A DNA stretch of 64,000 nucleotides, taken from positions 496,001 to 560,000 of the forward strand of contig CAWUHX010000210.1 of assembly GCA_963922205.1 (NCBI GenBank), read 5' to 3'. Made by a program: the position numbers and the translations under genes. Under the pieces are notes generated by a model. The model ran no database searches. It had not been told where the DNA came from and saw only the letters and a list, made by a program, of their open reading frames with translations. Positions 11,366-64,000 of this stretch are shown piece by piece; position 1 is the first letter of the stretch; every line of letters starts with the position of its first letter. The DNA comes from Romanomermis culicivorax. Taxonomy: Eukaryota > Nematoda > Enoplea > Mermithida > Mermithidae.

Positions 11366-11826
11366 TGTTGTAGTGACATTTCCAGTCTCCCACAACTGTT
11401 TTAATGTCACTTTACAACTTCTTGTACCTTACAACCAAAGATGAGCATGTCTCGAGCATCTCATCGATATTCAAACTGAGTGATGCAATTACTGTAGTCA
11501 TTGCATCATGTGCTGAAATTTCGGTCAGTGATTCAGAGTTTTGCGTTTTGTATTTTTCTTACCGATTGTTCCTACCTAACCAAATAAACTCCTCGTGGTG
11601 CATTTTACTGTCGCTGCCAGTAATAATTTAAATTGAGAAATCAAAGATTAAAAATTTTGAGCCTTTGTTATAGAGAGGGAAAATGCGCCCCGGCTGAGTG
11701 CTAGGTAAGTCTTAGTATTAAGGTCTGAACCTCTTGGACAAAAACTCCTGCCAAATCATTTTCAAATCTCAAATACTTTTGGTGGGTCACCAATCAAGAG
11801 TCTCCCTAATAAGTACATATATATCA
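11366..11826 (+). mobile_element. Element B 5' LTR
   Basis: About 461 bp starting TGTTGTAGTGACATTTCC and aligned with 28017-28439 along most of its length, with scattered mismatches. An extra segment of about 40 bp near 11631-11680 is absent from the 3' copy. CCAAATAAACTCC supplies a polyadenylation-type signal (about 11579). The divergence between the LTRs indicates an old insertion. Confidence 0.85.
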
Positions 11827-12060
11827 CTGGTGTTTAGTAAGTACTTACCTTCTCTGCGTTGAGGCCTAGTTTCCTTTACTTCTCATCAAATACTGGAGGC
11901 TAGACCTCGTAGGACATCTGCCTTAGGTTATTTTCCAGGTTTGTATAAGATGCTAATGAACACTCAAAAAATTCCTTATACCCCATCGGTGAATAGCATT
12001 TCACTAGTGGCTCCGACGGCACTTAGCAACTTGCTAGTCACCTCTGAGTCCTGGAAAAAT
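11827..12060 (+). CDS. gag: Element B leader and truncated gag start
   Basis: Follows the 5' LTR. A donor-like GTAAGT at 11837 and an acceptor-like TTATTTTCCAG ending at 11938 suggest a small leader intron just before ATG 11950. The frame opens MLMNTQKIPYTPSVNS and continues to about WKNPGS near 12060, where antisense element A sequence begins and the real frame is lost. The identification as the gag N-terminus rests on position, directly after the LTR and leader, and not on a recognised motif. Confidence 0.45.
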
Positions 12061-12065
12061 CCTGG

Positions 12066-13116
12066 AAGTAAGCTGTTGTGTAAATTTTCTGGCAGTCCAG
12101 TAACCTGCAGATTTCTTCCATGAGATCTGAGGTAAAGCAACCTCGTCTATCACTGAGTAATCTCCGTGGAGTCCCCTGTCTGAATATAATAGCTTGTAGA
12201 AAAGTATCTACAACGGTGCCAGCTGACTGATCTGGGATCAATTCAGCTTCAACCCACTTTGTGGAATAGTCCTGAAAGACTATGACATACTGTCTCTTCT
12301 CGCTGAGTGAAGAAATACCCACAATATCCACTGATACTATGTGGAAAGGACCTTCTGGAATTAATGGTATCAGGGTAGGAACTTCAGCATTTCCTAGGTT
12401 AGCCATTTGACAAACTGGACAAAACTTGATCCAGTGTCTGACATCCTTTTCAATTCCAGGCCAGCAGAACCATTTTTTAATCATGGTCAGAGTTCTCTTG
12501 AACCCTTGATGAGTCATCATAAGGGCACTGTGGTACTGGTGCAAAGTATTGTCTCTCAGAGAGGATGGAACCACTACTTGATCATCAGCTCCCTGTCGCC
12601 CTTCCTGGTATAACACTTCTTTCTGGATATAAAATCCAGTGTGATACTTGGTTGTCCCATTCAGACCCAATGTATCAAAATAAGGTTTCAATACCTCGTC
12701 TTTTCTATGCAAGAAGGCCATGGGATCATCTTTAAAGAGCCCTTTTGGCTACTCATCTTCTTTGGGGTCTGCCATAGTGAATTTGGGTTCTTTTTCTGGA
12801 TATAACCAGGTAACTTTTTTTTCTTACCTTTTTCCTGGTTACCTCCTTTTTCTCTTACCTGCCCCTGATTGCCATCAGGCTGAACCTGGGCCTGATTACT
12901 CTTTTCCACTTCTTTCACCAAGCTCCTTGTAGTGACAGCATTTATCAAGTTTGCTGGCAAGATAGATTCTGAATCACCCTCAGAATCTTCAGGATATATC
13001 TGATTGAACCTCGGATTTAGTTCAATCCTTTGATTTTCCTCACTTTTCTTCCCTGGATATAGTGGAGTACCATCTTCAGGATTCGGATTCGTTGAATTTC
13101 TGAATCTCTTCACCAA
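12066..13116 (-). pseudogene. pol: Element A integrase (truncated) and preceding linker
   Basis: Residues from 13116 form a Lys/Gln/Glu-rich linker between RNase H and integrase. In the next frame (12721 down) the HHCC zinc-binding region is visible (HQYHSALMMTHQGF ... CPVC). The first catalytic Asp lies in IVSVDIVG and the second in RRLLSDRRG. The frame ends at KIYTTAY (about 12066), before the catalytic Glu, because the sequence jumps to element B. The integrase therefore cannot be active. A frameshift separates linker and integrase near 12700. Confidence 0.8.
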
Positions 13117-13323
13117 ATTGAGATGGGTTTACTCAATTTGCTGTGCTTCCTGATCTTTCAGATTTGACTGTCGTCTATCTTCTGAGAACATATGTTCCTA
13201 TTTTGGCAGTATTTTTTCTGTCTGATTGTCTGGTTCATTCATTCTAGAAAGGAAATCTGCCATGACATTTTGTTTTTCAGGCACATACTCTAGCTTATGG
13301 TTGAACAGAGAGATGAATGAGTA

Positions 13324-13965
13324 CTATCTCTGCAACTTACCATTCGTCATCACATTGGCCTTCATTGAGAGTAAAGGCTTGTGATCAGTTCTCAGTATCA
13401 CTCTGTGACTTACCAGATAGTGCTTGTCGAACCTGGAGCAGTACACTATGGCCAAGCATTCTCTTTCCGTGGCTGACCATTTCTCCTCGTCCGCTTTCAA
13501 AATTCTGCTATTATAAGCAATTACCCAGCAGTCAGACTTGGTCTCCTGGTAGAGAACTGCTCCCAGTGCTGTTCCGCTGGCATCCATCTGAAGGACCAAG
13601 TCCACAGACCCTTCCAAAACTGGGTACCTCAGAAAAGGCACTGACAACAATGCATCCTTTAGGCTTTGAAAAGCCTGATAGTGAACCTCCGATACCTCCC
13701 AAACACTGTTTTTTCCTGTTAATTTATACAGAAGTTCCACAAATTTAGCTAGACCTGTTATGACTTTCTTGCACCATTGTAGCATTCCTAGAAACCTTTG
13801 GAGTTTCCTTTTAGGCTCTGGGAATGGGAACTCTTTAATGGCTTTTATTTTCTTCAGATCCAGTGAAACTCCATCTGAATTTAACATATGTCCTAAAAAA
13901 TGGGCTCTCTCTTGGAGAAATTCACACTTCTCATTTTTCAAGGTCAAGTGAGCCTTTCTTAGAAC
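13324..13965 (-). pseudogene. pol: Element A RT thumb/connection and RNase H
   Basis: Minus strand. LQERAHFLGHMLNSDGVSLD is the RT region after the catalytic loop. RNase H follows, with LQMDASGTALGAVLYQE (first Asp), KWSATERECLAIVY (Glu) and LRTDHKPLL (Asp), all retained. Sequence is open over about 200 codons, then continues toward the linker after a stop. In Ty3/Gypsy replication this domain removes the RNA template. Confidence 0.85.
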
Positions 13966-14779
13966 TTGCAGGACTAGCTCTAAATTAACTAAATGTTCGT
14001 CAAATGTGTTTCAGAATACAATATTATAGTCTATATACACGAGACAGATTTTCCATACATATGGGTGCAAGACTCATTCCATCATAGGCTGGAACTCTGC
14101 TAGCGCATTCTTTAAACCAAAAGGAATGACCTTAAATTGATATAGCCCTTCCTGGCATATGAAAGCTGTTTTTTCCTTGCTTTCCTCATCCATTGGCACT
14201 TGCCAATAACTGATTTAAAATCCAGGGTAGTATAAAATTTTGTCTTTCCTAAACAGTCTAGGTAGTCATCCATTCTGGGAATGGGATACTTGTCATCTTT
14301 TGTGCCTTATTTATACCCATAAAGTCCACTACTAATCGCTTGGTACCATCCTTTTTACCTACTAGAAGTAACAGAGCTGCCCAAGGTGTCTTTGATGGGT
14401 CTATAACACCCTTTTTGAGCACATCTTGGACATGATCACAAACATGTGGCCTTAAATTGATGGCAGTCCTCTGATAACATTTAGCCACAGGTGCTGCATC
14501 CCCTGTATTTATCTTACAGGTCAAATACAGTGTAGTAGTTGATGGATCATTCGGCAAGCTGAATACTACTCTGTATTTTGGGAGACATGTTAGAGCTTGT
14601 TCCAATTGATCAGATGGTTTATTGGATTTAGCTAGCATACTGTACAAAGCTTCCCTGAACTCTTTCTCATCCCTTTGAGTCGATTCAGGTTTAGCTTGAA
14701 CTGCACAAGTTTGCAGCTTCTCCTCTTCTTCAACTATCTCACCTTTTAGTTGATCTTGATTAGAGGAATCACATAACAC
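13966..14779 (-). pseudogene. pol: Element A reverse transcriptase N-terminal half, catalytic loop altered
   Basis: Minus strand. HVCDHVQDVLKKGVIDPSKT, KKDGTKRLVVDFMGIN and, in other frames, [18 protein letters not shown] identify a Ty3/Gypsy RT. The catalytic box reads LVYIDYNIVF at about 14045-14020: the second Asp of YIDD is Tyr, which should abolish polymerase activity. Frameshifts near 14260 and 14100 and an in-frame stop after NIVF confirm decay. Confidence 0.8.
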
Positions 14780-14788
14780 ATAATTATT

Positions 14789-15510
14789 TTAGCCAATTAT
14801 TTGATTTTGTTTCAAATGGCATCCTGATCCTGTGCTATTACATACCATAACTACAAAATCATTTCTGGTACCATCTACCATAGTACTATCTATGTGGAGC
14901 CTTTCTTCATTTTCTTCAGACTCGATTATGATTCCATTCAGGTGATTTTCGCCTACCTTGTCCCAAAGCTTTGCTTTTACAAGTATATCAGTACCACTAG
15001 GCAAGTAGATTTGATTCAAACTTACCACTGGCACTGAAACCTTCAAAAGGCAAATCTTAGGCTGACATTGGTCAGCGGCACTTGTCGTAGATTCTGCGGC
15101 ACTCATGCTGATGACCTCTCCACAATTTGTTTGGGGCTGGCTCGGTGTGACGTATATCCTTTGTTGGTGATTGTTGAGCATCATCATCCTCTCCCTGAAA
15201 TCTATTATGGCTTCTACCTGAGGATGAGCTAAAAAGTCTGTTCCCACAATTACATTTTCACCTGCTTCAGGGATAACAATTGCTTTTACTGGGAACTGTC
15301 CACACAGGGTATCCATCCTAAATTGACTGTTTTATTGTTGGCTACAGCGACATTTAATATCCTCAGATATTTAGTGTAATCAGGACCTAAAGTTTCTTTC
15401 AGAAATTTAGCTGACATAACCATACACTGAGCTCCTGCGTCAATGAGAGCCAATGTCTTACCACCTCCTATAATAACCTCAATATAAAATGGGGCTGTTT
15501 CGGAGTACAT
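14789..15510 (-). pseudogene. pol: Element A retroviral-type aspartic protease
   Basis: Minus strand. The active-site loop is LALIDAGAQCMVMS (about 15455), where the usual D-T/S-G is D-A-G. The second half, VIVGTDFLAHPQVEAIIDF, is the conserved flap-to-C-terminal region (compare IIGMDFLAQPDVGAMIDF in element C). A frameshift near 15300 separates the halves. A C-terminal piece ends NSTGSGCHLKQNQIIG, homologous to the only protease part left in element B (18555-18660). Confidence 0.8.
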
Positions 15511-17690
15511 AATGTTGCTCCTGAGGGCTTGCTGGTGTGTCTCTCTTTATTACCTGTACTGCTGGTACAACAGTTTCTGCTGCAATAGCATTCACTTGGA
15601 AAATACTGCCCAATACTACATTAGGGCGATTCACTCTCTGATCTACCTGGCCCAAAGGATTCATTTGTGATTGCCTAGCAACCATTATGCTAGAATAATC
15701 CTTCTGCGGCTACTAATTAGTGAATTGACCCTGGTGCAGAGTCTGAGTTGGTCCCATAATAGTGGCTGTAATGCAGCTTGCTGCTGGAATTGCTGAATTT
15801 GTTGATACTGCTTCTCCAGTTCTTTTTGCCTTTTGAATTCCAAAAATTTGTTTTAGTCCAAATTCTGTTCAAAATTTTCATGGCTATCCTGATATCCCCA
15901 ATAGCCAACATGATAAGCACCTCTGCCTCTGCTATTAAAGTTAGCATTCAGGTAACCTCTTCTACCTCTGTAGTTACCTCTAGCAAAATTGTTGAAGCCT
16001 CCCCTGTTGAAGGTACGGAAACTAGCTCTGCCTCTGCTCCTGTGTTCAGACAAAACCCACAATGCAGTATTATGTGTTGTGTTCTTGTGGAACACACACC
16101 ATGGCTTTGTTGGATCTCAGGAGACTTGATCTCCCTAGCTGGTGCGAGGTATGGCCACATCAGGCCAATTTTCTATTTGTCTATCATCAACTTTTTGCTA
16201 GAGTTGATCGAATCTTTGGACCAATTGTATTATTTCCTTGGAAGTTTTCAAGAGAAGAGACTCTTTCTTACATTTTTCAGTCTGGGCCCTAGGGGCTTTC
16301 CCAACTGGAATCTCCTCTATTTCAGGTGAATAACTTCTGAACCTTTGGGTCTGGGATGGTACATGATTACCTAAACTTTGATATGGCTGCCAAAACCTTT
16401 GTCTCTGGCTTTGTTGAAACCCTTCTGACTGGCTCCTAGCAAATACAGCAATTTCAGGATCATGGCCATTCTGCATCGCTACCTCATTAATAACAATTAG
16501 ATCCTGCTGAGTACCCTTAGGTCTGTACTTTTGAAAGGCATTCCTATATCTTCATTCGATATCATGAACTTCTACAGCTAAATTATACCAAGTTCTAAAC
16601 ATTTGCTTAGAATTTTTCAGTTCAGACTGAAATGTGGGATCACTTTTGTACACAAATGTGTCAATAATCAGTCTCTCCTTTGACTGATAGTCTAAATCTC
16701 CTTTTACTAGTTCCACTAATATACTGACTCTTTTCAAAAAGTCAACGGCCTGTTCATTGGGTCCTTCTTGGATCTCAAATAAATCCCTGGTTAACATTTC
16801 CAGGTTACACTCTGGTGCAAAGACATTAATTATGGCCTTCCTGGCCTCCCTATAGGTCATGTTGCCACTTGCAACCACCTTTGGTCTGCCCTTAGAAAGC
16901 CCCAGCAGTGCTTCATACTTAGCTGATTTGGGTGTATCCCTACAGAGTTCTCTTTCTAATGCTGTCAAGAAGCTAAGCACCTGCTGATTTACAATACCTT
17001 CTTCTAAAAGTTTGAGTAACACACCTTTAATGATATTCCTTATAACATTCTCGTGTGCCAAATTATTAGTTGGCATTTCTCTCTGATTGTATGCTGCCAT
17101 TAGAAGTGCATCCATATCAGAGTTTAGAGATTGCAACATAATTCTATATGGATCTCGTTGTGGTGGTACACCTCCTTGATTGGATGGTAAATTGTCTCTG
17201 TCAAATCTATAATCCCTATATGGGAAACATGCCAGTTGATCTGGTCTAGGGGTATTCGGATCAATTATGTTTCCTCTACCATCATAGACCACTCTTGTCA
17301 AAGTCAGATGCTGCTGAGCTGGCTGATTTTGATTCCATTGGTCTGCCGATTGCTCAGCTCCCTTGAATCAAACATCTCCAGCTGGACCTCTCCAACTTTT
17401 GGGCTCAAAATTTGGTCTTAGCCCTTCATCAAACTTTGGCCTGCCTGTTGTTGGTCCATGTCAATTGATGGTGGGTGGTCTAATGGCACACCTAGATCCT
17501 GGGGCGTAAAATGCATTGCTTGTTGTTGCAATGGCACTACCCTCGCAGGAGTCTGATCTGGAATCACTGGGTCCAGGGCAGCATGCTATAGCTGATCCCC
17601 ATCTCCCTAATTGAGCAGATTCCCAGCATTCACCACTCTAGGTGGTGATCTATGCATAGTATTACCTCTCGACATCGTTTCATTTGGCAT
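15479..17690 (-). pseudogene. gag: Element A gag and nucleocapsid region
   Basis: ATG at 17690 starts MPNETMSRGNTMHRSP. The frame is Gln/Pro-rich, broken by stops near 17610 and 17590, then open from 17301 to 16552. That part has a capsid-like helical region (REARKAIINVFAPECNLEML, EQAVDFLKRVSILVE) typical of Ty3/Gypsy gag. After a frameshift, a Gln/Arg-rich stretch (16476-16198) leads to a knuckle-like C-x2-H-x4-H at about 16090. There the expected last Cys is Trp (CVFHKNTTHNTALW). An RGG-rich tail follows at 16060-15870. Pieces down to 15479 link to protease. No intact frame remains. Confidence 0.7.
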
Positions 17691-18050
17691 TTTAAATTAT
17701 GCTAATTTTCTGTAGAAACCTGGAGGATATTTCTTTCTCCTAGTCTGACTACGAAGTTATGTTATCAGGAGTTAAAAGGGGCCACTTGTTGGGCAGGTCC
17801 TGTTAGGGGCCACTACTTGTTGTGCAGGTCTTTCCTTAAAGGTTTAAGAAAAGCTTGGTTCTGGTGTGAACTGACCTGTTAGAGCTAATTCATTGGCTAT
17901 GCTTCGGAGATTGTGCAAAAGGCCCGAATCCCCCAGACCTGGCAACAACAATTAATAACTTACCATTAATCGAGGGGCCTCAAAACAGAGCCCCCGATGT
18001 CCCCTAGGAGAGAAAGGTTTCCCCTCTGGGATAGACTTACCTGCAGGATC
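17691..18050 (-). other. Element A 5' leader
   Basis: Minus-strand sequence upstream of the gag ATG. Donor-like CTGCAG/GTAAGT (about 18036-18025) and AATG/GTAAGTT (about 17967) and acceptor-like TTGTTGCCAG (about 17940) suggest that the leader was spliced. The element's own LTR is absent; sequence passes into element B near 18050-18066. Confidence 0.45.
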
Positions 18051-18065: not shown

Positions 18066-18870
18066 TTGGGCTTGCTGTCAGCAAGCGGGGCACCTGAGCC
18101 TTTGGCCCTTCACTCCAGACAGTTATTTGCCAGCAAATGGCAACCTCTTACTGTAATTCCTAGACATCAGCCTGACTCACCTGAAATAATTTCAACTCTC
18201 ACTACTCTTGAAAGACCTTTTACAGAAGAAATTCTGATTTCTGCCCAATCTTCAGACTATCCATGATCCGAAAGTGATGAGCCAGTTGAAGAGATTGAAG
18301 CTGAATTCTCTGATCGACCTGTTCAAACCAACACTTCCACAGTTGTTGATCCCAACAATCTAGTTGTCCCAGAACTTACTGAACCTATCTTTATTGTTGC
18401 TGCTGCTACTGTTTAGATTCAACCTTATTCTCAACATTGGATTCATGGTCATGTTTTTCCACAGACAGACACACCTATACCTGATTTAATAGTTCAACCT
18501 GCACCTAACACTTCTAACCCTGAAGAATTTCCTGTAGAAACTTCAGTAATTGATATGTGTAATGGAACTTGTCCACTTCTGTTTGTCAATAATTCTGGTA
18601 ACCATCTTAAGCTTAGTACTAACCAAGTAGTTGCTGTTGTAAAGCACTCTCTGGAAAATTCACACACCAGCTCACAGGATATCCTCTCACCTGTTGCTGT
18701 AGCTGCATCAGAGCCTGATCCAGCTGATCACCAACCTGCTGCATTAGATCACTCTCTGCCTATTACTTCTAATTCTCAAAAACTTCACTTAGCTCTTCAA
18801 AAAATGACTCAAAATACCTCTGTCTCGCCCACTCAGAAGGCTGAAGCCATTAAGATACTCAAATGGTATC
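18066..18870 (+). pseudogene. pol: Element B protease C-terminal remnant and spacer
   Basis: Open segments broken by TGA at about 18264 and TAG at about 18414. A segment at 18555-18650 (CPLLFVNNSGNHLKLSTNQV) matches the tail of the protease regions of A and C. The protease active site itself is missing, lost where element A sequence adjoins. The spacer is Ser/Thr/Pro-rich and leads directly to reverse transcriptase. Confidence 0.65.
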
Positions 18871-20400
18871 AAGATGTTTTCAGCTTCCTGGTGATCCTCC
18901 TACTTTTACTCATGAGCTCACGGTAAACATTGATACTGGCAATGCTCAACCCATCGCTAGATACTACTATTGTGCTCTCATTGAACAATGCCCTGTAGTT
19001 AGGTCTCACATTCAGGAAATGCTCGATAAAGACTTTATTGAACCTTCATGATCCCCTTGGGCTGCTCCTCTTTTCCTAGTGAAGATGAAGGATGGTTCTT
19101 GACCCCCTGGTAGTTGGCTATCGAGGCATTAATGAAGTTACACCTAGTGATTGTTTTCCAATTCCTAGAATTGAGGATTACCTAGATGTAAGGGGAAATG
19201 CAAAGTTTTTCACAACTTTGGATCTGAAAGTAGGCTACTGGCAAGTACCTCTTGACTCTGAATCTCATGACAAAACTGCTTTCATGTGCCAGGAAGGACT
19301 TTTTGGGTTCAATGTTTTACCCTTTGGATTGAAAAATGCTCATGCAGAATTTGAACGTCTGATGGGAAGAATTCTTCATCCTTACATCTGGAAAATCTGC
19401 TTGGTCTACATAGATGATATTATTGTTTTCTTGAAAACTTTTGAAGAGCATCTTGAACACATTCAGATGATCTTCAAGGTGCTCAGAGACACTAATCTCA
19501 CTCTTCTACCTGATAAGTTTGAATTTCTACCTCCTAAGGTCAAATTTCTCAGTCACCTTCTGAATTCTAAGGGCATCTCCACTGATCCGGATATGGTAAA
19601 ACCTATTTGCAATTACCAGTTCCGGAGTACCAAAAAGCAGATACAAAGCTTTCTTGGCCTTGTACAATGGTGCAAGTGCTTTATGCCTAAACTCGCTACC
19701 TTATTGGCACCACTCTATGAGCTGCTCCAAAAAGATGCAACCTACACAGTTACTGATATTCAAAGACAAGCATTTGATGGTATTAAAACTGCTCTCACAT
19801 CTACTCCTTTGCTGCATTACCCTGTTTACGATGGTAAAGCTCAATTTGTCATTCAAACAGATGCCAGTACTATGGCAGTAGGTGCAGTTTTGTATCAAGA
19901 ATCTGGTGACAATAAGTGGATAATCGCTTATAATAGCTGTGTCTTAACTGATGCCAAAACTCGCTATAGTACTACTGAACGTGAATGTCTTGCAATTGTT
20001 TATGGTATCTGAAAGTACTGACATTATGTTTACAGACAACCTGTCATAGTGCGTACTGACCATGAACTTTTACAATGGTTAAAAGACAAAAAAAATAGCA
20101 ATACTAGACTGCAACCCTTCACAATCAGCTTGCAGGACTATGACTATAAGGTAGTGTATGTCAAAGGAAAGGATAATGCCTGTGCGGATTTCTTGTCTCG
20201 CAAAGATCTTCCCAAACCACCTCTTATCCCTCCGAATGAAGAACTTGCTTTTGAAATCTTTAGATCCGAATTTCGCTCTTCTGAACAATCTCAAACTTCT
20301 GCTGAGGAAATCTGTTCATCTATCACAGCGACAGACAATGTTTTACCTACTGCTACTGAGTTAGATATTCCTATCATAGACGCGGTTACTTGTCTATGAT
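18860..20400 (+). pseudogene. pol: Element B reverse transcriptase and RNase H
   Basis: Ty3/Gypsy [18 protein letters not shown] and [13 protein letters not shown] precede a TGA (about 19049). A frameshift near 19100 follows, then VGYRGINEVTPSDCFPIPRI, FFTTLDLKVGYWQVPL, FMCQEGLFGFNVLPFGLKNA, and the intact catalytic LVYIDDIIVF (YIDD at 19407-19418). RNase H has QTDASTMAVGAVLYQE, YSTTERECLAIVYG and, after a TGA at about 20010, VRTDHELLQWL, so its acidic residues are retained. The RNase H tail (KDNACADFLSRK) is followed by a Glu/Ser-rich linker with three more TGA stops (20397, 20490, 20523). Catalytic residues are intact but the frame is broken. Confidence 0.85.
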
Positions 20401-20529
20401 ATATGGCTAAGACCTCTTACACTCCTCAAACTATTGCGCCCAATCCTCAAGCTTTGTTAAAAGATGATTTCCAGTTACCAGCAGTAGAATGACCTGGTAT
20501 TGCCCCTCCACCTGAAATTCCTTGACTTC

Positions 20530-21785
20530 AAAACAAGGATCCTGTTTTAATTAAAGTTATAAGTGCTCTTAACTCTGATAATCCTCTTAAGTCTCCTACT
20601 TGCTTTTTCATTGAAGATGGTATACTCTACCAACAGTCTAAGGTACCCAGACAACTCCTTGTCCCTACAGCACTTGTGGATACTGTTCTTCACCAATTCC
20701 TTGGTGCAAAAATTATGAACCATCAAGGGCACAATCATACTCTTGATGCCATAAAGCTTCACTTCTGGTGGCCCAGAATGGAAGAGGCCCTGGGAACTTG
20801 GATTAAAACTTGTAGGATCTGTCAGTTAACTACTGCTAAACTGCCCACTCTTGGACCTCTGATTCCTATTAAGCCGACATATCCATTCGAGATTGTCACA
20901 ACTGATATTGTTAATACTTCCACTGTAAGTGATCACAGATCTTACGTCATTGTTTTCCAAGACTACTTCACTAAGTGGGTAAGTGCTCACCTGATCCCTG
21001 ATCAGAAGGCCCCTACTATAGTCAAATGTTTTGTCAACAATGTCATTCAGCAACACAGAACTCCTCAATTTCTGCCTTCTGATCAAGGTAGCTGTTTCAC
21101 CTCAAAACTCATGCAAGATGTTTGTGAGCTGCTGAAGATCAGAAAAGTTCAAACTACTGCCTATCACCCTCAGTGCAACCTGATGGTTGAGAGATTCAAT
21201 CAAACATTAATTTTTCAACTTAAACAGTATACTGTGGAAGATCCTGATAACTGGGAATGATACCTACCCTATGCAGTCTTTGCTTATAATGCTATTCCTC
21301 ATATTGCTACCTGCCACTCTCCATTCAAATTGTTGAGAGGTCATGAGCCTTGAATCACTTTTGATTACAAATGCGGGAAACATCTGACTTTACCTTTAAA
21401 TTATGAGACTTATCAGCATATTCTGACTAAATCTCATCTGAATCTGTATAAGAACATTAGCGAAAACCTGGATAAAGCAGCAACCTCTAGTAAGTTCTAT
21501 TATGATAAGAAAGCCAAACAGTGCTAGATCGCCACAAATGACCTTGTGTTACTGGTTAACTCTAAGAAAGGTAATAAGATACAGCCCAACTACATCAGCC
21601 CATACATTGTTACTGGCACAAATACTCTTGATAATAATGTCCTCACTATTGATGCATTAGATTCTCCTGGTAGACCTCAAATTGTATCCATTTCTTGCCT
21701 AAAAAATTATATTCCAGGATCTTCTAGGGAAATCTTTTTAGCTAAAGCTGGTGGTCCTCCTCCGCCATCTGTTCTTGCTAAATAA
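20530..21785 (+). pseudogene. pol: Element B integrase
   Basis: The N-terminal zinc region ([20 protein letters not shown] ... CRICQ, 20690-20825) is H2C2. The catalytic core has D in VTTDIV (about 20902), D in LPSDQGSCF (about 21080) and E in [10 protein letters not shown] (about 21188), so the D,D,E triad is intact. The C-terminal domain continues to 21785 (LVNSKKGNKIQPNYISPYIV), interrupted by TGA at 21258 and 21351 and TAG at about 21525. It ends LAKAGGPPPPSVLAK. Integrase inserts the cDNA into host DNA; for this copy that is recorded by the GTCC duplication. Confidence 0.85.
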
Positions 21786-22350: not shown

Positions 22351-22516
22351 ATGGCACAACCTGCCATTTCCATCAATGCAGGGCGGCCACCTCTGCCGCC
22401 GCCTTCAGTTCATCAGCCGCCGCCTATCTTTAGCGCCAATATTAACACCCAAGAGCAGTATGCGACTTGAGCAGACACTTCAGGATGTCAAAATGACATT
22501 GCATTTTCCGCGGACG
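22351..22516 (+). CDS. Element B ORF3 exon 1 (proline-rich leader)
   Basis: ATG 22351 opens MAQPAISINAGRPPLPPPSV, about 55 codons, Pro-rich, with one TGA at 22468 and ending FSADG. The exon ends at a consensus donor, GACG/GTAAGTTG (GT at 22517). Joining to 23112 across the intron keeps the frame and makes the codon GAG. Element C has the same arrangement, with donor at 59340, so the exon boundary is supported by comparison. Function unknown. Pseudogenised by the TGA, most simply a CGA-to-TGA change. Confidence 0.65.
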
Positions 22517-23111
22517 GTAAGTTGCATGCATTTTCACCTGCTGTCCTTTTTTTCTTGGTTCATGTCTTTTTTTTCTTGGTCTTTCTGGTTTGAGTTTCCC
22601 ACTGTGCTTAGTTTCCGACTCCCTAAGTACCAAAAGACTCGCAGTAGTCAGTTTCTGCCAGTCTGATCAATCATTATGCCTTGGCCTAGCTTGCGCACAT
22701 TCCGACACTGAGGCTGCAGACTGCTTCTGAAGTTAATCTCAAATTAACTTTGGTTGTGAAGGTCATGCTCAAGTCCATAATCGAGAGAAGCCATCTGCCT
22801 AAAATCAAACTTCATTTTCGAACACTAAAATTTTCAAAAATCAACACTTTTCGAATTTCTCAAATTCCAAACTAACAACTTTTCAGATTTTTACATAAAA
22901 CTACTACTGATTTTCCAAAACTCAAAACAATCTCAGCATCATATTTTCAAATACCTTTCCTTCAAATTTTCAAAATTTCCTTTCTTATTTTTTAGTATTT
23001 TTGGTCAAAACTTTTTTTTCTAACTTCCCTGTATGTTTAAGTATCTCTGAGTAGATACTCTCAGTCACTTTCTCTTAAGAAATGTGTATAATTTATCTTA
23101 AATGTTTTTAG
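22517..23111 (+). other. Element B ORF3 intron (595 bp)
   Basis: GTAAGT donor, AT-rich body, and TCTTAAATGTTTTTAG acceptor. Element C has an intron of 623 bp at the homologous codon (58718-59340), in the same phase (one base of the codon before the intron). Introns inside retrotransposon coding genes are uncommon because retrotransposition of spliced RNA would erase them. Persistence implies that full-length genomic RNA stays unspliced. Confidence 0.65.
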
Positions 23112-23965
23112 AGTTCAATGTCAAGCGGCTCGTTTGAGTAAGAGAGCTTGAGCAGTGGTATATGTCACTGTTTCAGCATCCTCCTAGTTCCATATCCTTG
23201 CCAGAGTTCGTACTCCCAGGCCATCTGCATTCAGCATTGTCCACAGTGCAGATGCCCAATTTTCGTGGATACACTCTGATTGGCTTTGACACTGAATCGA
23301 TTATTACATCAGACTTGTCAAGGTTTTCACATTCTTGTTTTATACCTTTTAATTCTGATACCAAGACTGTACCTAGGTACATGCAACTCACCCACCCAGA
23401 TGGCAGGGCTCTCGTTTTCAAAGCTCTCTTAGCCACCGGAGAAGATTGGACTGCCTTCTTTAAGTAGTTTGATAACACCCATACCATTGTCTCTAAATTT
23501 GATGCCGACAATGACTGGCGTGCTCTGTACACTCTGGTAGGTCCTTCTTCCCACACAGCAAGTCAAAGTGCTGAACCTACGGTCATCCCCAAGATACGGA
23601 TGATCAACATTGTCGGATGCATGAAACGGAGTGAGAAATCTCCTGATCTTTTCGAGAAAGCCCAGCTTATCAGCTTTTTCCCTGAATGCGGCACTCTCAA
23701 AGCATGCATAGCCTGTATGTGGGCTTGGGATATGGTATCCTTTAACCGCAACTTTTCTAAAAACCCCACTTATTAGGCCACACCATCCTAACGCTAACTG
23801 TTTGGCAATAAGCTAATATATGTGGGACTAGATGCTTTCTATCTCATTCTGATGTATCTAGCTTTGGGTCACCATAGTTTTCTTGATGAGCTCTTTTGTG
23901 CAGCCAAAATCTTTCCTCACGATTTATTTCACCCTTCTATTATCGACCATATTGCTAGGGTTCTA
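23112..23965 (+). pseudogene. Element B ORF3 exon 2: DEDDy-type 3'-5' exonuclease domain
   Basis: Exon 2 begins EFNVKRLV-stop-VRELEQW, matching DYNIKHLVCVGEIEQW of element C. The domain then shows Exo I, TLIGFDTESI (D-x-E, about 23270-23300), a strand YMQLTHPDGRALVFKALL, and Exo II, SKFDADNDWRALYTL (about 23495-23535). It continues with KIRMINIVGC and LKACIACMW segments, then Exo III, LIYVGLDAFYLILMYL (Y-x3-D, about 23815-23860). This is the order and spacing of the RNase D/WRN/EXD class (DNA_pol_A_exo1-like). The enzyme class removes 3' nucleotides from RNA or DNA using two metal ions held by the four acidic residues, all present here. Breaks: TGA 23135, TAG 23465, TAG near 23774, then a frameshift before Exo III and another near 23960. 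Confidence 0.7.
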
Positions 23966-25110
23966 ATTTGTCATGGGTAGATAAGGACTCTCTATTACCT
24001 ACTGGGTTTGACTTTCCCAACAACCCCACTCTGTCGACGGAATTCCTACCAGCAGTGATGCAGGACGAGGCATTGTCGGTCCTCTCCTATCTTTTTATGG
24101 ACACTATCCAGCCCACCCACGGTCAGCAGATGAGCCGGGCTACATTGACCAATGGTGTGGCGCTCTTATAAACTGTTCAAGCTTCAACTTTTCCATGTCC
24201 TCTGCCAAAACTCTCTTGGATTCATTGCAGGAATCTTCACAATGCTCAAGCTAATGACCCTCAGTCATCACTCGAGTATCCTGTGATACTCAATAATCCT
24301 CTGGATCTTCAAATGGCCATAGCCACAGCTATGCGGTCAGGAAAGCTCCTGATTTACACTATGCTTTGGGTGCACCAATGTCCATTAACTATCCAATGCA
24401 GGTTTTCCATTGCCTCCTTACTGATTTTATTTCCACATCTGATCCCCTTCCTTGTGAATCTGATGCCTTCACTGATTGCATGGCTAGAGATCAACTGAGG
24501 TGGGGAAAACAGTACAGCAAAGGTTACCAGCACCCATCTCAAACTTATCTTCATTATCTGACACCTAAGAATGTCCACACCTCGAATCTTTTGACTGCTA
24601 GCCTTCCACTACCTCTCCATGCTCTCTGGAGGAATATGATGATGTCCAAAAGACAATTTGTAATGCCATTAGTGACATGGTCGAGGAACTTAGGAAGTTT
24701 TACATGCTCTAATGTTGGTTGGATGTGAAGGGTGACCCTATGGACATCCTTACTCACTATAAGAAAACCTTGCCCCAAGTCAAACCTAAATTCGGGTGCA
24801 AATCTGTATCTCATATCACAGACCATTTGGCTCTACATCCAGTCATAGTCTCCTCAGCTAGAATGGACATCGACAAATCAAATCTTCTACACCAGGACTC
24901 TAGGTACAAAATTAATCCTCACTACTACTTTTCCTGGTTGTCAAAGTGTGTATGTCTACTACTGATTTACCAAGTTTTGACGCCACCATCTGCTACCCTC
25001 AATACTGTAACTTCCACATCTGCTACACCTTCTGCTCAATCTTCAACAACTCTCCCGTTAGAAGCTACGCCCAGGGTTGACCTCGATCAGTGTGTTACTG
25101 TTGACTGAGA
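23966..25110 (+). pseudogene. Element B ORF3 middle helical region
   Basis: Follows the exonuclease domain in several frames: DKDSLLPTGFDFPNNPTLST, then PVILNNPLDLQMAIATAMRS, MSINYPMQVFHCLLTDFIST, and KVKPKFGCKSVSHIT-type segments. The PLDLQMAIATAM and CLLTDF segments align loosely with PVDVVWYITAGLA and LFQLGRECYEPVEI of element C (57480-57380). This implies a conserved helical domain after the exonuclease. At least four frame changes or stops (24171, about 24360, 24498, 24726) break it. No known fold recognised. Confidence 0.5.
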
Positions 25111-25642
25111 ATTATTTCACATAGCAGTTAATCTTCTGAAGCATAATAACTTACCCACTCCTCCTCATAAGGGTTTCTCGCCTTCCGGACAAAAGCTAAG
25201 CCTTTTTCCGGACCATGAATTCCTATTTTTGTATGAGATGATTTTTGGACCTTTACCTACCACTCCTACCCCATCCTCCAGTCAGCCAGCGATGGTTCCA
25301 ACAACAGTAGCCATGCAACCAACTGTTTCTGTTATGCCTTCAACTCAGAGCGCAGTGCAGCAACCTCAAGTTGTGGTTCAGCCTCAAACATCCATTTCTG
25401 CTCCACCTCAGAGTGCCTCGAAACAACCTCAAGTTGCTGCTCAGCCTCAACCATCAACTTCTGCAACTCAGTCAAGCTCATCTGCTAAGTGTAGGAGCGC
25501 TGCAAATCAATCGATATCAATAGCAGTTAAGCAACCTACAGTAAACAGCGATGCCCTCACAGTCACGCGCATGCCAGGCAAACCTACGCTATCCAATCCT
25601 ACTGTAGACACTATACCAAGATCCATTGCCTTATGTCTCTGA
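25111..25642 (+). pseudogene. Element B ORF3 low-complexity linker, part 1
   Basis: Open from 25229. It is Pro/Gln/Ser/Thr-rich, with an imperfect internal repeat of about 27 codons (QPQVVVQPQTSISAPPQSAS and QPQVAAQPQPSTSATQSS). It ends where the exon-bearing insertion begins. Probably a disordered linker. Element C has a Pro/Gln/Thr-rich counterpart (56400-55640). Confidence 0.55.
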
Positions 25643-26140
25643 GTTTTTTTTCTCATTTATTAAAAACATATGCAACAGGAAAGTAATGGACCTCACGACT
25701 ACACCTACAAAGATTAGAATCTAAAGTTACGTGATATCATGACATAATATCTTAGTTTTTATACCTTTTTTTCATATATAAATGTATGATTTGTATGTAA
25801 AACTTCACTTCACTATATTCTCTTAATAAATTTAACTTACTTGCTTTTCTGCTCTTTGACAAAGTCGTAGGGTCGTCCTGTAAAACGTCGTCCACATCAT
25901 CCGGATTTGCAACTATTGGAAGCTGGAAAGAAACATATTTTCGTTACGAGACTAAACTTTTCTTTTAAAATTACCTTAGTGTTTTCCTGAGCGTTGCCAT
26001 CATTGTCCATCCTTTGACATTTCCATTGGCGTTTCTGAAGAAAACAGAACAACTCAAGAACATTTTTAGCATTCAGTCCGATTTGCAGGTTGTTCAGCTA
26101 CAGTAACCTGTATTTACCCTTAACCCAAAAATAGACAACC
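25643..26140 (-). mobile_element. Insertion in ORF3 carrying two antisense mini-exons
   Basis: This is an AT-rich block unlike flanking ORF3, whose Ser/Pro/Lys-rich coding resumes at about 26145 ([20 protein letters not shown]). Minus-strand gene structure: acceptor CTGTTTTCTTCAG, exon 26034-25975 (60 bp), donor GTAATTTTA, a 52-bp intron, acceptor TTTCTTTCCAG, exon 25922-25841 (82 bp), donor GTAAGTTAA. In one continuous frame the exons encode an Asn/Asp-rich peptide containing RMDNDGNAQENTK followed by LPIVANPDDVDDVLQDDPTT. No parent gene recognised and the insertion ends are unclear. Confidence 0.5.
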
Positions 26141-27617
26141 CTTACATAAGTCTAAGCAATCTTATCGTATTCCTAAGGTCGCTGCAGCCTCAGTAGTCGC
26201 AAAGCCTTCATTTTCCACCTCTGCTACCCCAATTTCTAGTCCTACACTCACAGGTGAAGATCTAGCTGAAGCTTTAGCTGAGATCCAAGTTGGTACCAAG
26301 ACTGTCAACCACTTTCACATCCTTGACATCTCTGGCAAACCTATGATGGATGTTCTTCACCATCTCCATTCTCAACTAAAGAAATGGAAGATAGATCCAC
26401 AGGACAAATCTGGCAAATCTCACAAACCTACAGCGAAGTCTTGTCCGGCTGCTCAAAAAGGCACCCATGCTTCAAAGACCAAACTGGAATCTAAGAAACC
26501 TTCCACATCTCAACAGTACAAACCTCACCATTCTCGTGTCATGCCTCAGTGTTTCACACAACCTCAGGCCACTGCCAAACCAGTAGCTAAGACACACTGT
26601 AGGCAACAAACCATTCCTAAGGTGCCTATGGAGCAGCTTCCATCACTGTTTTCAATCTATTTTCCACCTGGTTTTGGTGCACCAGAACAGCCTCCCACTG
26701 CTGTTGCGCCCATCTACCAGCCTTACATTCAACAACTGTACCAACTGGCTATTGTCCCTCAGTATCAGTATCTTGCTCAATTTCCACCTCCTCCACTGGC
26801 TTATGCCATACCACAGCTAAATGCTGGGTATCAGGCACCACCGGCTAGGTATCCTGTTCCTTTTCAACAACCTGTGGTCCAGTTGCAGCAACAACACCAG
26901 CTAATCGCTGCTACTGCAGCTCAACCTCCACCACCTGTTCAGCAAGCTCCAGTAGTACAGCAATCAACCTTGTCTACTACAAAGAGTGCAACTACTCAAC
27001 TACCCTCCTCTAGTGCATCTCATTCCATGACTGCTACTATGTCCACGACTGCATCTATGTCACAATCTGCTCCCCTATCAGCCCACCAGCCCGGTCTGGC
27101 TGGAACTCATTTCAAGCCTAGAGTGGTGACCCACCCTGATATCTTCGACCTGTTATCTTGCCTTAATATTAATTTTCCGTCTGGCACCTCTCAAAAGGCA
27201 ACTGACGCAAATATGTCTCTTTACCAATTATATCGAGATACCTATAAGATCTCTGTCATTAGGGCTACTGAGCGCTCCATTCCTGACATCCTGTTGAGTA
27301 CCATCCTTGACTGGCTGCCCAACTGGGCTATTGGCATCCAGATAGCTGAGCTCACTCTCTTCTTACGCGAATGTCAATCATTGAACAAAACATTGCATTA
27401 CCTAACTGCCAATACCTCATCAGTTGAGATGATCAAGGCTATTCTTGAGAAACCTCAAGAGGTAGGCGTCTGTGACCCTCATAGGCTATGTGTGTTGGCC
27501 ACGGTTTGTGCCAACCCTCACCCTGATGGTCATGTCACAGGCCGCATCCTTGGTCAGTTTACTGTATCTTCTCAATCGTATCATCAATGTTCCGGTTCCC
27601 ACACTGCTCGTCCTTAA
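26141..27617 (+). CDS. Element B ORF3 linker part 2 and conserved C-terminal domain
   Basis: Open from 26343 (earlier codons in frame from about 26145) to the stop at 27617. It has a Lys/Ser-rich segment, a long Pro/Gln/Tyr-rich low-complexity segment (26690-27100), then a structured end. That end has [40 protein letters not shown] and [15 protein letters not shown], probably helical. The last part is the homologue of IPEPLWDRIICEIILEWLTE in element C (about 55370) and of the remnant in element D (about 8430). No known family recognised. A nucleic-acid or particle-binding module is possible but unproven. This is the longest undamaged stretch of ORF3 in the window. Confidence 0.6.
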
Positions 27618-28002: not shown

Positions 28003-28016
28003 GCAAGGGGGAGGGG
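28003..28016 (+). promoter_or_regulatory. Polypurine tract of element B
   Basis: AAGGGGGAGGGG immediately precedes the 3' LTR's TG. It is the expected plus-strand primer and fixes the LTR start. Confidence 0.85.
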
Positions 28017-28439
28017 TGTTGTAGTGACATTTCCAGTCTCCCACAACTGTTATAATGTCACTTTACAGCTTCTTGTACCTTACAACCATAGATGAGCATG
28101 TCTCAAGCATCTGATGGATATTCAAACCGGGCGATGCAATTACTGTAGTCATTGCATCCTGTGCCAGAATTTCAGTCAGTGATTCAGAGTTTTGCGTTTT
28201 GCATTTTTCTTACTGACTGTTCCTACCTCGCCAAATAAACTCCTTGTCACGCATTTTACTGTCATGGCCAGTAATAAAGGGAGTATGTGCCTCAGCCCAG
28301 CACTAAGTAAGTCTTAGTATTATGGTCTGAACCTATTGGACAAAAACTCCTGCCAAATCATTTTGAAATCAAAATCAAATCTCAAATAATTTTGGTGGAT
28401 CACCAGTCAAGAGTCTCCCCAATAAAAACACATATAACA
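28017..28439 (+). mobile_element. Element B 3' LTR
   Basis: 423 bp, TGTTGTAGTGAC ... CACATATAACA, aligned with 11366-11826. Polyadenylation-type AATAAA lies in GCCAAATAAACTCC (about 28223). It is followed by the 3' target duplication GTCC (28440-28443). Removing 11366-28443 restores a continuous MITE sequence, which confirms orientation and ends. Confidence 0.88.
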
Positions 28440-36893: not shown

Positions 36894-36960
36894 CTGTGAA
36901 CAAAAAACATGTAATTAGTGACCAGAAGGAACAGAACCTGCGGCCGGTTCCATCAGAGAG

Positions 36961-38909: not shown

Positions 38910-38922
38910 GCATTCGGACATA

Positions 38923-39425: not shown

Positions 39426-39427
39426 TA

Positions 39428-43257: not shown

Positions 43258-43296
43258 TTTGATTCACACCAATGCAGAGCTATTCGTGCGTTCCAT

Positions 43297-51112: not shown

Positions 51113-51120
51113 CTTTCTTA

Positions 51121-51523: not shown

Positions 51524-51539
51524 TAATGCACAACATTTT

Positions 51540-57262: not shown

Positions 57263-57900
57263 GCTTTTTCCAATGCAGAAAATATTGTTGAATCCATGAC
57301 ATTCTCATAATTCCTCAAGTCCACCATCCAATGGTCCCTGTGGTACTTAGCCATGCCGGTGTCGATTTCCACTGGCTCGTAGCACTCCCTTCCAAGTTGG
57401 AACAATTGCAACTGCTTCGACCAGTCCTGTCGAGGAGTCTTATTTATGGCAAGACCTGCTGTGATATACCATACGACATCTACTGGATCCATTAGTTTAA
57501 AGAACGAAACCCCATGCAACATTTCTGTGTGTAGTTGGTTATTCACCTCATTGGTCCTACTAACCTGCTGATCCAATGTATCCATGTCCTCCTGATCACT
57601 TAAATCCTCCCACTGATTCAATTTTTTCTTTCTAGGACCAGCTTTTAGCACCTTGGAAAAAACTCCAGACAGTAAAGTGTGGTCCTTAGCTTTAGCGGGA
57701 TTTTTAATATCAGCAGGACATAAATAACCCGACAAATCAGTTTGACATTGCATAGCCCACCTAGCCATTACTTCCTGCCGCATCAATTGGTAGACTTTGA
57801 ATAACTGCCTTTTTATGATATCTTTCTCTTCTATGAAGTTTGGATCCTCGAACCCCATTAGATCTTGAGAATAGACTGTATAAAGACATAAAGCCTAAGT
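57193..57900 (-). pseudogene. Element C ORF3 helical region after the exonuclease
   Basis: Minus strand, open from 57858 to 57193: MGFEDPNFIEEKDIIKRQLF, KLMDPVDVVWYITAGLAINK, QLFQLGRECYEPVEIDTGMA. The PVDVVWYITAGLA block corresponds to PLDLQMAIATAM of element B. A frameshift near 57230 leads to the next segment and another joins it to the exonuclease domain. Confidence 0.55.
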
Positions 57901-58717
57901 TTTCACTCGAACCAGTGACATAATATCATGGAGGTATGTTGCCATAACCCCACTCAATTCGCCACATAATCCATAGTGAAGGAACCCCCAAAAACACGGC
58001 AATTGAGTAATAGGCATCCAAGCCAGCAAACACAATTTCAGTGTCCTGAATCTTGTAAGCCAAGAACTTTTCTCCAACTTTCTTGTCAATGAAGTCGCAT
58101 TGGTATTTGCTGACATCAGCCAAGTAAAATTCTGTGAAAAGGCCTTTTAGTCCAAGGTTTTCAGGACATAGACCCAAATTATGAGCATGATTGATCATGG
58201 GTCTGGTCATCATTCTGATGCAAATCTCACAATCTCAGTACTTTCCAAATCCTTGGAATATACCGGCTTGTATGATTTTTGTCTTATCATGAGCCAAGGC
58301 ACCCGTAGACTTTCAAAATTGTAACTAAATCATCCACAACTTTGAAACGGACCACTGATTAAAGGAATTAAATCAAGAGATCCCATTCCTGCAGCTTCAA
58401 TGTTATAAGTTTGATAACATAGCTGGATCCATCTATATGGAGGAATGACGCCAACCTCATGAACTCTTTCCTTTCCAGGTTTTGAATTGAAACTTTATAA
58501 GTTACTACACATACCTCCAGCTTCTTGACCTTTTCCACGTCCAAATTGACAATGCCTAACCCCCAAAACTGGCTTGTGATCAATTGTTTCAGGATTGGCT
58601 CAATGTTGCTGCGGTGTACCCATTACGGTTTCATCGGTCTTTGCGGCCAATATCCCATGGCACTGGCGAACCATTGTTCGATTTCGCCAACACAGACCAG
58701 ATGTTTGATGTTATAAT
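57890..58717 (-). pseudogene. Element C ORF3 exon 2: DEDD-type exonuclease domain
   Basis: Begins at acceptor TTTTTGATTTTTAG (ag at 58718-58719) with DYNIKHLVCVGEIEQW, matching element B's exon 2 start. Next come Exo I, LGIVNLDVEKV (D-x-E, about 58560), FMRLASFLHIDGSSYVIKL (strand), and Exo II, VVRFKVVDDLVTI, with Asp retained (about 58340). Then come NLGLKGLFTEFYLADVSKYQ and Exo III, EIVFAGLDAYYSIAVF (about 58040-57990). Here the usual Tyr four residues before Asp is Phe. It is broken by TAA near 58623, a stop after EWDLLI (58368), a frameshift around 58300-58210 and another near 57980 in an A/C run. All four acidic positions are still present. Confidence 0.65.
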
Positions 58718-59340
58718 CTAAAAATCAAAAATACTTTGCCCCTTGATCCTTTAAAAATTAAGCATCAGGCCATCGCCACCACTTAAATAACCCAATTTGA
58801 CTGGCACCAAATTTAGAAAAAGATTTAGTGTGGGGAAAAAATAAATTAATTGGATAGGTTAGGTCTCAAAGTCATAAAGTAAGCAGGCATGGTGGTTAAT
58901 GCAAATGCTACACCAATTTTTCAGGAACCTCACATTTGCAACACCTTTCGCTTCTCGATGTCATACACCGTCAATTTACCACTTATCATAGGGATAACTC
59001 CATGCCTCGGTACAAAAATTAAATGATGAGTAATTAATCAATCAAGGTTTTAATTAATCAAGAAATAAATTTAGTAAACCAGGGGCTTTGATAAACACCA
59101 AAAATAAATGCTTTGGAATCAGATCCAAGGTAAAAACAATTAGATTTTGGCTTTTTAGGGCCCTAAATCCATTAGGTTTTTTCTTTTCACCTATCCTAAC
59201 ATTTTTAGAAACTTTTCTTGGAACTCGTTTTCCCCTTGGTTGGCCCATTCAGAAAATTGAGCGTGAAGAAATCATTCCAAAGACACCTAAATGGGCAAAT
59301 TTGTTCCACTTACCAAGAAATAATTAAATAAGAAACTTAC
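58718..59340 (-). other. Element C ORF3 intron (623 bp)
   Basis: Minus-strand donor GATG/GTAAGTTTC (GT at 59340-59339) and acceptor GATTTTTAG. Homologous in position, phase and approximate length to element B's 595-bp intron, while the sequence is otherwise diverged. Conservation across subfamilies argues that the splice is real. Confidence 0.65.
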
Positions 59341-59412
59341 CATCAGTCAAAAAACCTTGGTTATTTTGGTGGCCTTGTGGTCGGCATGCCTTCACGTGAT
59401 CGGCGTGCAAGC
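59341..59412 (-). CDS. Element C ORF3 exon 1 (end only recognisable)
   Basis: The frame reads DHVKACRPQGHQNNQGFLTD up to the donor, parallel to element B's exon 1 ending FSADG. An in-frame TAA lies about 20 codons upstream with no ATG between, so the start has been lost or lies beyond an indel. Confidence 0.4.
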
Positions 59413-61429: not shown

Positions 61430-62100
61430 CTAATTTCTGATTTGCAGTGTATCTTTGGTAGTTGGTGCAATATTCTCTTTTTCTACCATCAATTCCTGGG
61501 TATCCATCAATTCCTTGGTCTGCTCAGGGAGATTTTTTTCGTCTCTACTTTCAACTTCTTCATCCCTTATCCTCTGAAATTGTTGTACCAACTCTTGGCT
61601 TTCAATTTCATTGGTTTGAGTTCCAAAATTATGAAATTAAATTTTGAAGACATGTTCCCATTTTGGTGGGTTTTTGTCCTCAGTCTCTTGAGGTTCATCC
61701 TTCCTTGAGAGGAAATCAGCCATCACATTTTGTCTATTGGGCACATACTCCAATCTATGATTAAATTGATTTATAATGGAATATCATTTTTTAAGTTTAT
61801 CATTGGTTTGAGTATTGACTTTCAGTGATAAAAGTGGTTTATGATCAGTGTTGATCAATACTTTTTGTCCAAACAAATAGTGCTGGTAAACTTCAAGACC
61901 ATAGACAACCGCTAGGCATCCTCGCTCTGTAGCACACCTTTTCCTCTCATCTTCCTTATGGATTCAGCTGCTATAGGTTATTACTCATTTGTCATCTTTA
62001 GTCTTTGGATAAAGTACTGCTCCCAGTGTGGTTCCACTGGCATCTGTTCGGAGAACAAACTCCACAGTTCCATCCAAAACAGGATACCATAGAAATGGTA
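61430..62100 (-). pseudogene. pol: Element C RNase H and linker
   Basis: Minus strand: VEFVLRTDASGTTLGAVLYP (Asp), RCATERGCLAVVYGLEVYQH (Glu), NTDHKPLLSLKVN (Asp), then YVPNRQNVMADFLSRKDEPQ. A Glu/Gln-rich linker to integrase follows (EIESQELVQQFQRIRDEEVE). Stops near 61970, 61780, 61640 and 61430. Confidence 0.8.
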
Positions 62101-63953: not shown

Positions 63954-64000
63954 ATTAATGTGAAATGGGAGAGTTCGAGGAAATTTAGAAAGCTGTAATT

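What the first reader, a model, noticed from the sequence alone, without database searches (positions are those of the whole stretch)
22351..27617. Ty3/Gypsy retrotransposon with a third gene encoding a DEDD-type 3'-5' exonuclease
Downstream of an unambiguous Gypsy integrase, element B has ORF3 with Exo I (GFDTES), Exo II (DADNDWRAL) and Exo III (YVGLDAFYL) in the right order and spacing for the RNase D/WRN class. It is bracketed by LTRs, so it is element cargo. Gypsy elements are known for env-like third genes, and I know of none with an exonuclease. Possible roles, all inference: trimming or proofreading of nascent cDNA or RNA ends, analogous to nidovirus ExoN, or degrading host small or double-stranded RNA, analogous to the arenavirus NP exonuclease.
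Basis: partly seen in the sequence, partly recalled or inferred. Interest (0 to 1): 0.95.

Follow-up and report, generated by a model that had tools for sequence, protein, structure and literature searches.

The report
Exonuclease gene in nematode Gypsy retrotransposons
Jumping genes in a mosquito-parasitic worm carry a third gene with the signature of an RNA/DNA-trimming enzyme; the stretch read here is a dead copy, but hundreds of related copies exist, many with this gene still readable, and its protein sequence has been kept by natural selection, so the enzyme probably helps the element spread.

Summary
The genome is Romanomermis culicivorax v2. Window element B is an old, dead Ty3/Gypsy copy; its ORF3 (22351-27617) has DEDDy motifs Exo I, II, III in order, but with six in-frame stops mapped, no gag/PR found and a second element nested inside. 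[quoted passage not shown] LTR pairs are 99.2-100% identical, and the seven with full-length LTRs show 4-bp target duplications. A polypurine-tract/LTR junction occurs 631 times (control 0). Exonuclease dN/dS is 0.05-0.16 among nine relatives: strong purifying selection. Window element C belongs to a second abundant exonuclease-bearing family; a third type is Pfam-recognised. Pfam does not recognise families B and C; identity rests on motifs, cross-family alignment (about 26%) and a low-confidence model whose 50 listed PDB neighbours I read as all DEDD-fold. New here, as far as my searches show: a nematode host, giant ORF3, mass amplification, measured selection. Substrate and activity are untested.

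The parts
11366..11826 (+). LTR copy of the element-B family (starts TGTTGTAGTGACATTTCC); probable 5' LTR of B, now separated from the body of B by element A
   Evidence: 77.5% identical to 28017-28439, same strand; the 18-base start motif occurs only at 11366 and 28017 on the plus strand
12038..17700 (-). Element A: another Gypsy element on the opposite strand (PR, RT and INT pieces by homology, a gag-like frame by my reading), lying between the LTR at 11366 and the pol of B; right end approximate
   Evidence: stop-to-stop frames; tblastn of family-B pol to 12068-15507; integrase 59% identical to that of element C
18288..21767 (+). pol of element B (RT/RNase H 19092-20009, integrase 20526-21257), interrupted by stops
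   Evidence: 56.5% identical over 1171 columns to the gag-pol of relative L023; Pfam RVT_1, RNase H, H2C2, rve
22351..22516 (+). ORF3 exon 1 (ATG at 22351; in-frame TGA at 22468)
   Evidence: sequence; a similar small first exon can be read in relative L023 and the join in UniRef gene model P0121, both by eye
22517..23111 (+). Inferred ORF3 intron (GTAAGT ... TTTTTAG), 595 nt, phase kept
   Evidence: sequence; inferred, no RNA data
23112..24000 (+). DEDDy exonuclease domain: Exo I 23282-23299, Exo II 23501-23527, Exo III 23819-23845; stops at 23135, 23465, 23774, 23789, 23795
24001..27617 (+). Rest of ORF3 (P/Q/S/T-rich and C-terminal part), broken by frameshifts and stops and by unaligned sequence around 25643-26123
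   Evidence: tblastn of L041 ORF3: 24010-24390, 24614-25015, 27111-27575
28007..28016 (+). End of the polypurine tract (GGGGGAGGGG) next to the 3' LTR
   Evidence: a like tract stands before the 3' LTR in 10 of 10 fetched relatives
28017..28439 (+). 3' LTR of element B
57634..58724 (-). Second, independent exonuclease-bearing ORF3 in the window: element C (decayed), Exo III motif FAGLDAYY near 58000
   Evidence: L051 exonuclease region matches in three pieces, 72-84% identical; genome-wide family
60006..63986 (-). pol of element C (PR, RT, integrase pieces)
   Evidence: tblastn of family-B pol in four pieces

Best explanation
ORF3 of element B is a decayed copy of a real, selected third gene of Ty3/Gypsy retrotransposons of Romanomermis culicivorax. 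[quoted passage not shown] it has the motifs of a DEDDy (RNase D/EXD2/WRN-like) exonuclease domain, followed by a long P/Q/S/T-rich region and a basic RS/RE/RD-rich tail; its protein sequence is under strong purifying selection. INFERRED: the domain has the DEDD fold; it is made from a spliced message (small first exon, intron of about 0.4-0.6 kb) and acts in the nucleus as a metal-dependent 3'-5' nuclease on RNA (or single-stranded DNA) 3' ends. Mechanism I commit to, at about 0.4: the RS/basic part binds element or host RNA, and the DEDDy domain trims RNA 3' ends so that element transcripts escape decay or Dicer/RdRP-type silencing, which by published data is what this worm has in place of piRNAs. 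The confidence below is for a selected DEDDy-type ORF3, not for the substrate.
Against: No Pfam hit over cut-off for families B or C and no credible PDB sequence hit (the profile gave Psb28 at 0.013 and a response regulator at 0.84). Both AlphaFold models are low confidence (mean pLDDT 40 and 45); 0 Foldseek hits at E<=0.001; the VIA alignments cover model residues 23-207, so Exo I and II but not Exo III. In the wider alignment A7 (18 sequences with fragments and decayed models) no motif residue is invariant. Which Exo II aspartate is catalytic is unclear: the window family reads N then D, some relatives D then N, one D then A. Among 132 aligned UniRef models (of 134 given; 50-87 cover a given site), which I take to be mostly decayed copies, catalytic residues are not clearly better conserved than the domain median (0.80, 0.78, 0.62, 0.76, 0.89, 0.88 against 0.825). 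No GTRAGT splice donor was found in relative L023. No expression or activity data. dN/dS pairs share ancestry, and copies were chosen for open frames.
Confidence: 0.85

Rival explanations
1. RNA-binding adaptor, not a nuclease: the DEDD fold serves for binding element RNA (nuclear retention, export or localisation), as in Egalitarian, Maelstrom or EXD1, in the role that the CERV protein plays for Cer1 of C. elegans.
Against: Exo I DxE kept in 19 of 19 distinct family-B loci and Exo III Y..D in 18 of 19; at least one aspartate of the Exo II pair remains in 18 of 19, and the 19th (L044) has a six-residue deletion there.
Confidence: 0.3
2. Replication enzyme: the exonuclease trims or proofreads 3' ends of nascent minus- or plus-strand cDNA or of the tRNA primer, as the first reader suggested by analogy with nidovirus ExoN.
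For: DEDDy enzymes act on single-stranded DNA and RNA 3' ends (PMC5408684); model neighbours include exonuclease-type domains of family-A DNA polymerases.
Against: ORF3 is a separate frame behind an inferred intron, not part of gag-pol, so packaging with RT would need an extra step; LTR elements in general work without such a gene (general knowledge).
Confidence: 0.2
3. Env-like protein: ORF3 serves cell-to-cell or horizontal transfer and the exonuclease resemblance is secondary.
For: Position downstream of pol is that of env; long ORF3.
Against: In L041 no hydrophobic stretch of transmembrane strength (highest 19-residue Kyte-Doolittle mean 1.72, and that is the Exo III helix), 7 Cys and 6 sequons in 1,557 aa; DEDD motifs.
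Confidence: 0.03
4. Passenger: a captured host gene without function for the element.
For: [quoted passage not shown] the one family-C pair examined gives 0.35.
Against: dN/dS 0.05-0.16 in 36 of 36 pairs, against 0.15-0.49 in 45 pairs of the decayed window subfamily; same kind of gene in several element families.
Confidence: 0.03

Closest known systems
DEDDy ORF3 of bdelloid rotifer LTR retrotransposons Juno and Vesta (Rodriguez et al. 2017, PMC5408684)
   Same: Gypsy-class LTR elements; extra ORF downstream of pol; RNase D-like DEDDy exonuclease domain; occurs in more than one element lineage of one host.
   Different: Nematode host; ORF3 frames of 1,658-1,799 aa (ten family-B copies) and 1,356 aa (many family-C copies) with long low-complexity and RS-rich parts (family B); very high copy number; strong purifying selection measured here. 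Sequence relation to the rotifer proteins was not tested (their sequences were not reached).
DEDDy ORFs of Terminon/Athena Penelope-like elements (PMC5408684; PMC6431247 passages and one section)
   Same: Retroelement-borne DEDDy exonuclease.
   Different: Penelope-like, another class of retroelement.
CERV of Cer1 (C. elegans; PMC10309623 passages)
   Same: Third gene between pol and 3' LTR of a nematode LTR element, from a spliced message.
   Different: 517 aa; the paper reports no obvious homology outside nematodes and the word exonuclease does not occur in its text. No sequence comparison made here.
Cellular DEDDy exonucleases: EXD2, WRN, Rrp6, mut-7/Nibbler, RNase D
   Same: Motif order and, in a weak model, fold.
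   Different: Sequence divergence below Pfam/PDB detection for the window family; host genes, not mobile.

Membership tests
Ty3/Gypsy LTR retrotransposon | PR, RT, RNase H, integrase in that order in one polyprotein | tested here: met
   L023:1033-7887, 2,285 aa; the window copy has RT/RNase H and integrase, with stops, its PR was not found
Ty3/Gypsy LTR retrotransposon | LTR pair TG...CA, polypurine tract, target-site duplication around the unit that includes ORF3 | tested here: met
   10 of 10 LTR pairs; TG...CA ends and 4-bp duplications in 7 of 7 copies with full-length LTR pairs, 3 others truncated
Ty3/Gypsy LTR retrotransposon | tRNA primer-binding site after the 5' LTR | not tested
   TGG follows the LTR; no tRNA matched
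DEDDy 3'-5' exonuclease fold family | Exo I DxE, Exo II D, Exo III YxxxD in order and spacing | tested here: met
   invariant in A5, five sequences of three subfamilies, not in the wider A7; Exo I 19/19, Exo III 18/19 distinct family-B loci; the exact Exo II residue is ambiguous
DEDDy 3'-5' exonuclease fold family | RNase H-like DEDD fold | tested here: inconclusive
   all 50 listed neighbours read as DEDD-fold, but model pLDDT 44.7, best E 1.8e-3, and Exo III outside the aligned part
DEDDy 3'-5' exonuclease fold family | metal-dependent 3'-5' exonuclease activity | not testable with these tools
   needs purified protein
Pfam PF01612 (DNA_pol_A_exo1) as a curated family | score above the curated cut-off | tested here: not met
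   families B and C give no hit, so they are not filed under PF01612; the L008 type does reach it, E=1.4e-10
Rotifer Juno/Vesta DEDDy ORF3 | sequence clustering with the rotifer ORF3s | not tested
   rotifer sequences not reached; the 120 listed of 160 hits and the 78 hits are all R. culicivorax
Env-like third gene | transmembrane segment, fusion-protein features | tested here: not met
   hydropathy, Cys and sequon counts of one ORF3, L041

The most novel reading that the evidence does not exclude
The ORF3 exonuclease is a retrotransposon-borne counter-defence: it removes 3' ends of silencing RNAs or of their templates in a worm that by published data lacks piRNAs and 22G-RNAs, and this underlies the massive amplification of exonuclease-bearing Gypsy lineages (family B recent by its LTRs, family C abundant but undated) in a genome reported to be four-fifths transposable elements.
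Probability: 0.2. Interest if true: 0.85.

Novelty: new variant of a known kind. Interest (0 to 1): 0.6.

Why it matters
An exonuclease as the third gene of Gypsy-class elements has been described in bdelloid rotifers without evidence of benefit to the element (PMC5408684). Here the same kind of gene appears in a nematode, in at least two abundant element families with open copies, as part of a giant ORF3, and selection on it is measurable in family B (dN/dS mostly 0.05-0.09 at high dS). That turns 'what is the exonuclease for?' into a testable question: many near-identical and many diverged natural copies exist, the candidate catalytic residues are named, and the host's unusual small-RNA background suggests a concrete hypothesis.

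Tried and rejected
Pfam on the window pieces and on open ORF3s: no PF01612 for this family; weak DUF4350, DUF5432, Spot_14 and CMS1 hits ignored as below cut-off. PDB sequence searches: nothing relevant for families B and C. Profile comparison of the window-family exonuclease with the L008 type: roughly colinear but probability 1.6%, E 0.03, not used as proof. First AlphaFold job (pLDDT 40) not used; second used only with caution. MAFFT misplaced Exo I of the L008 type when aligned with the others, so that type was left out of the last model. A test for extra conservation of catalytic residues in 132 UniRef models was negative. The dN/dS sets were parts of what I had: 9 of the 10 loci L041-L050 (L044 left out for its deletion), 6 of them in the second test, and 10 of the 12 loci L009-L020 with the window copy in place of L009 (L010, L012 left out); the ten copies were not used except L023 (same locus as L041). 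Family C dN/dS rests on one pair, 0.35. Relatives outside R. culicivorax: none among listed hits (searches scored only the roughly 8,000 candidates sharing most words). Literature searches for precedents (open-licence PMC library; listings, then the papers named): rotifers, reviews of them and the 2019 mention; no nematode case in those listings. Rfam and tRNA scans of the window: nothing.
Full report
Host. The window is contig C210:496001-560000 of a 359,112,060-base, 595-contig genome, the same size and scaffold number as R. culicivorax v2 in Table 1 of PMC10879605 (passages; 289 of 359 Mb are transposable elements according to that paper). All listed database relatives of ORF3 are R. culicivorax proteins (120 listed of 160; 78).

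The window copy. Element B has a plus-strand pol at 18288-21767, 56.5% identical to that of a relative with an open gag-pol, with RT, RNase H and integrase domains. Behind it, ORF3 starts with a small exon at 22351, continues after an inferred 595-nt intron at 23112, and can be followed by homology to 27575, close to the stop at 27617. A polypurine tract and an LTR follow at 28007-28439; a same-strand LTR of the same family lies at 11366-11826, 77.5% identical, with a minus-strand Gypsy element between it and the pol of B. The copy is dead: one stop in exon 1, five in the exonuclease domain, more breaks downstream.

Relatives. A search of the genome with the 101-aa Exo I piece gave 1,826 first-look candidates, of which the 150 scored all match. 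Of these, 70 (the window copy included) are 57-100% identical, in frames of at most 363 aa; 80 are 44-48% identical, many in open frames of 1,640-1,680 aa. Ten of the latter, chosen by me for long open frames on the plus strand, were fetched as separate upstream and downstream stretches. In 10 of 10 there is a direct-repeat (LTR) pair around pol frames and ORF3, 528-599 bp, 99.16-100% identical. Seven have full-length LTRs with 4-bp target duplications; in three the 5' LTR is truncated. Five of the ten have one open gag-pol frame of 2,285 aa; the others are interrupted or deleted there. The PPT-LTR junction pattern occurs 296 times forward and 335 reverse with up to two mismatches; the reversed control pattern 0. 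So ORF3 is a standing part of a young, abundant element family.

A second family. Element C on the minus strand of the same window has the remains of a DEDDy ORF3 behind its integrase. Its family has 1,925 first-look candidates (150 scored, all match), with many frames of exactly 1,356 aa. One open copy (L051) reads VGFDVE / FKVVDDL / YAGLDAYY, and a 601-base piece about 1.6-2.2 kb upstream of its Exo I (L053) reads as integrase by eye. Its exonuclease matches window element B at E=1e-24, 24% identity over the domain. LTRs of family C were not examined. A third type (L001-L008) is recognised by PF01612 (L008: E=1.4e-10; 80 PF01612 matches in the genome, not checked one by one) and lies behind a degenerate integrase-like frame in L002, L005, L006, L007 and L008, 5 of 8 loci (L002, L005 and L008 confirmed by BLASTP to family-B integrase).

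Selection. Nei-Gojobori dN/dS of the exonuclease domain is 0.05-0.16 in all 36 pairs of nine relatives, with dS up to 1.19 and dN at most 0.083. The region behind the domain gives 0.04-0.29 in 15 pairs of six copies; the decayed window subfamily 0.15-0.49 in 45 pairs of ten copies over the Exo I piece; one family-C pair 0.35. Pairs share ancestry, and copies were chosen for open frames. A test that did not support me: in 132 UniRef gene models, which I take to be mostly decayed copies, catalytic residues are not clearly better kept than the domain median. My reading is that the gene was kept by selection during amplification and that copies decay after insertion.

How it may work. The open ORF3 (L041) has the exonuclease domain in its first quarter, a KKKKKK run, P/Q-rich and S/T-rich stretches and an RS/RE/RD-rich tail, no transmembrane segment. 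A spliced first exon is inferred: the window copy has GTAAGT and TTTTTAG at the join, UniRef model P0121 shows the corresponding join, and L023 has a similar small exon about 0.4 kb before the domain frame, but without a GTRAGT donor. This suggests a nuclear RNA-handling protein rather than an envelope. R. culicivorax is reported without Piwi and without triphosphate small RNAs, in a clade with RRF-3-type RdRP only (PMC4323106 passages); an exonuclease acting on RNA 3' ends could protect element RNA from that pathway. An RNA-binding, non-catalytic role (Egalitarian-like, or in function like CERV of Cer1, PMC10309623 passages) is the main rival, and a role in cDNA end processing is possible. 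None was tested.

Novelty. DEDDy ORF3s of Gypsy-class LTR elements were published for bdelloid rotifers in 2017 (PMC5408684, parts 1-3 of 5 read) and are repeated in reviews (PMC5718144 passages; PMC6431247 passages and one section; PMC6338049 passages). In my searches (listings of an open-licence library) I found no nematode case, no ORF3 of this size with this domain and no measured selection on it. I therefore rate it a new variant of a known kind.

Noticed in passing
window 54800-63990, minus strand: A second decayed Gypsy element (C) in the same window also has a DEDDy ORF3 behind its integrase; its family has about as many first-look candidates as family B and many open frames of 1,356 aa.
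   Followed up: partly
L001-L008: A third, PF01612-recognised exonuclease ORF (up to 614 aa), in five of eight loci directly behind a degenerate integrase-like frame; a different lineage of exonuclease and of integrase.
   Followed up: partly
P0001: A UniRef R. culicivorax gene model joins an Exonuc_X-T (DEDDh-type) domain to the tail of the L008-type ORF; could be a gene-prediction artefact or a chimera.
   Followed up: no
window 40366-43263, minus strand: A 965-aa open frame without a Pfam match at E<=0.01, in an otherwise repeat-rich window; 34748-36952 minus holds two more long frames (252 and 481 aa), the longer also without a match.
   Followed up: partly
window 30505-31065, also 3-458 and 45022-45458: A degenerate tandem repeat with a 97-base period, six copies in a row at 30505, related sequence elsewhere in the window.
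   Followed up: no
window 38921-40029 and 51119-52148: A 1.1-kb direct repeat, 84.6% identical, with shorter repeats nearby; perhaps another transposable element family.
   Followed up: no
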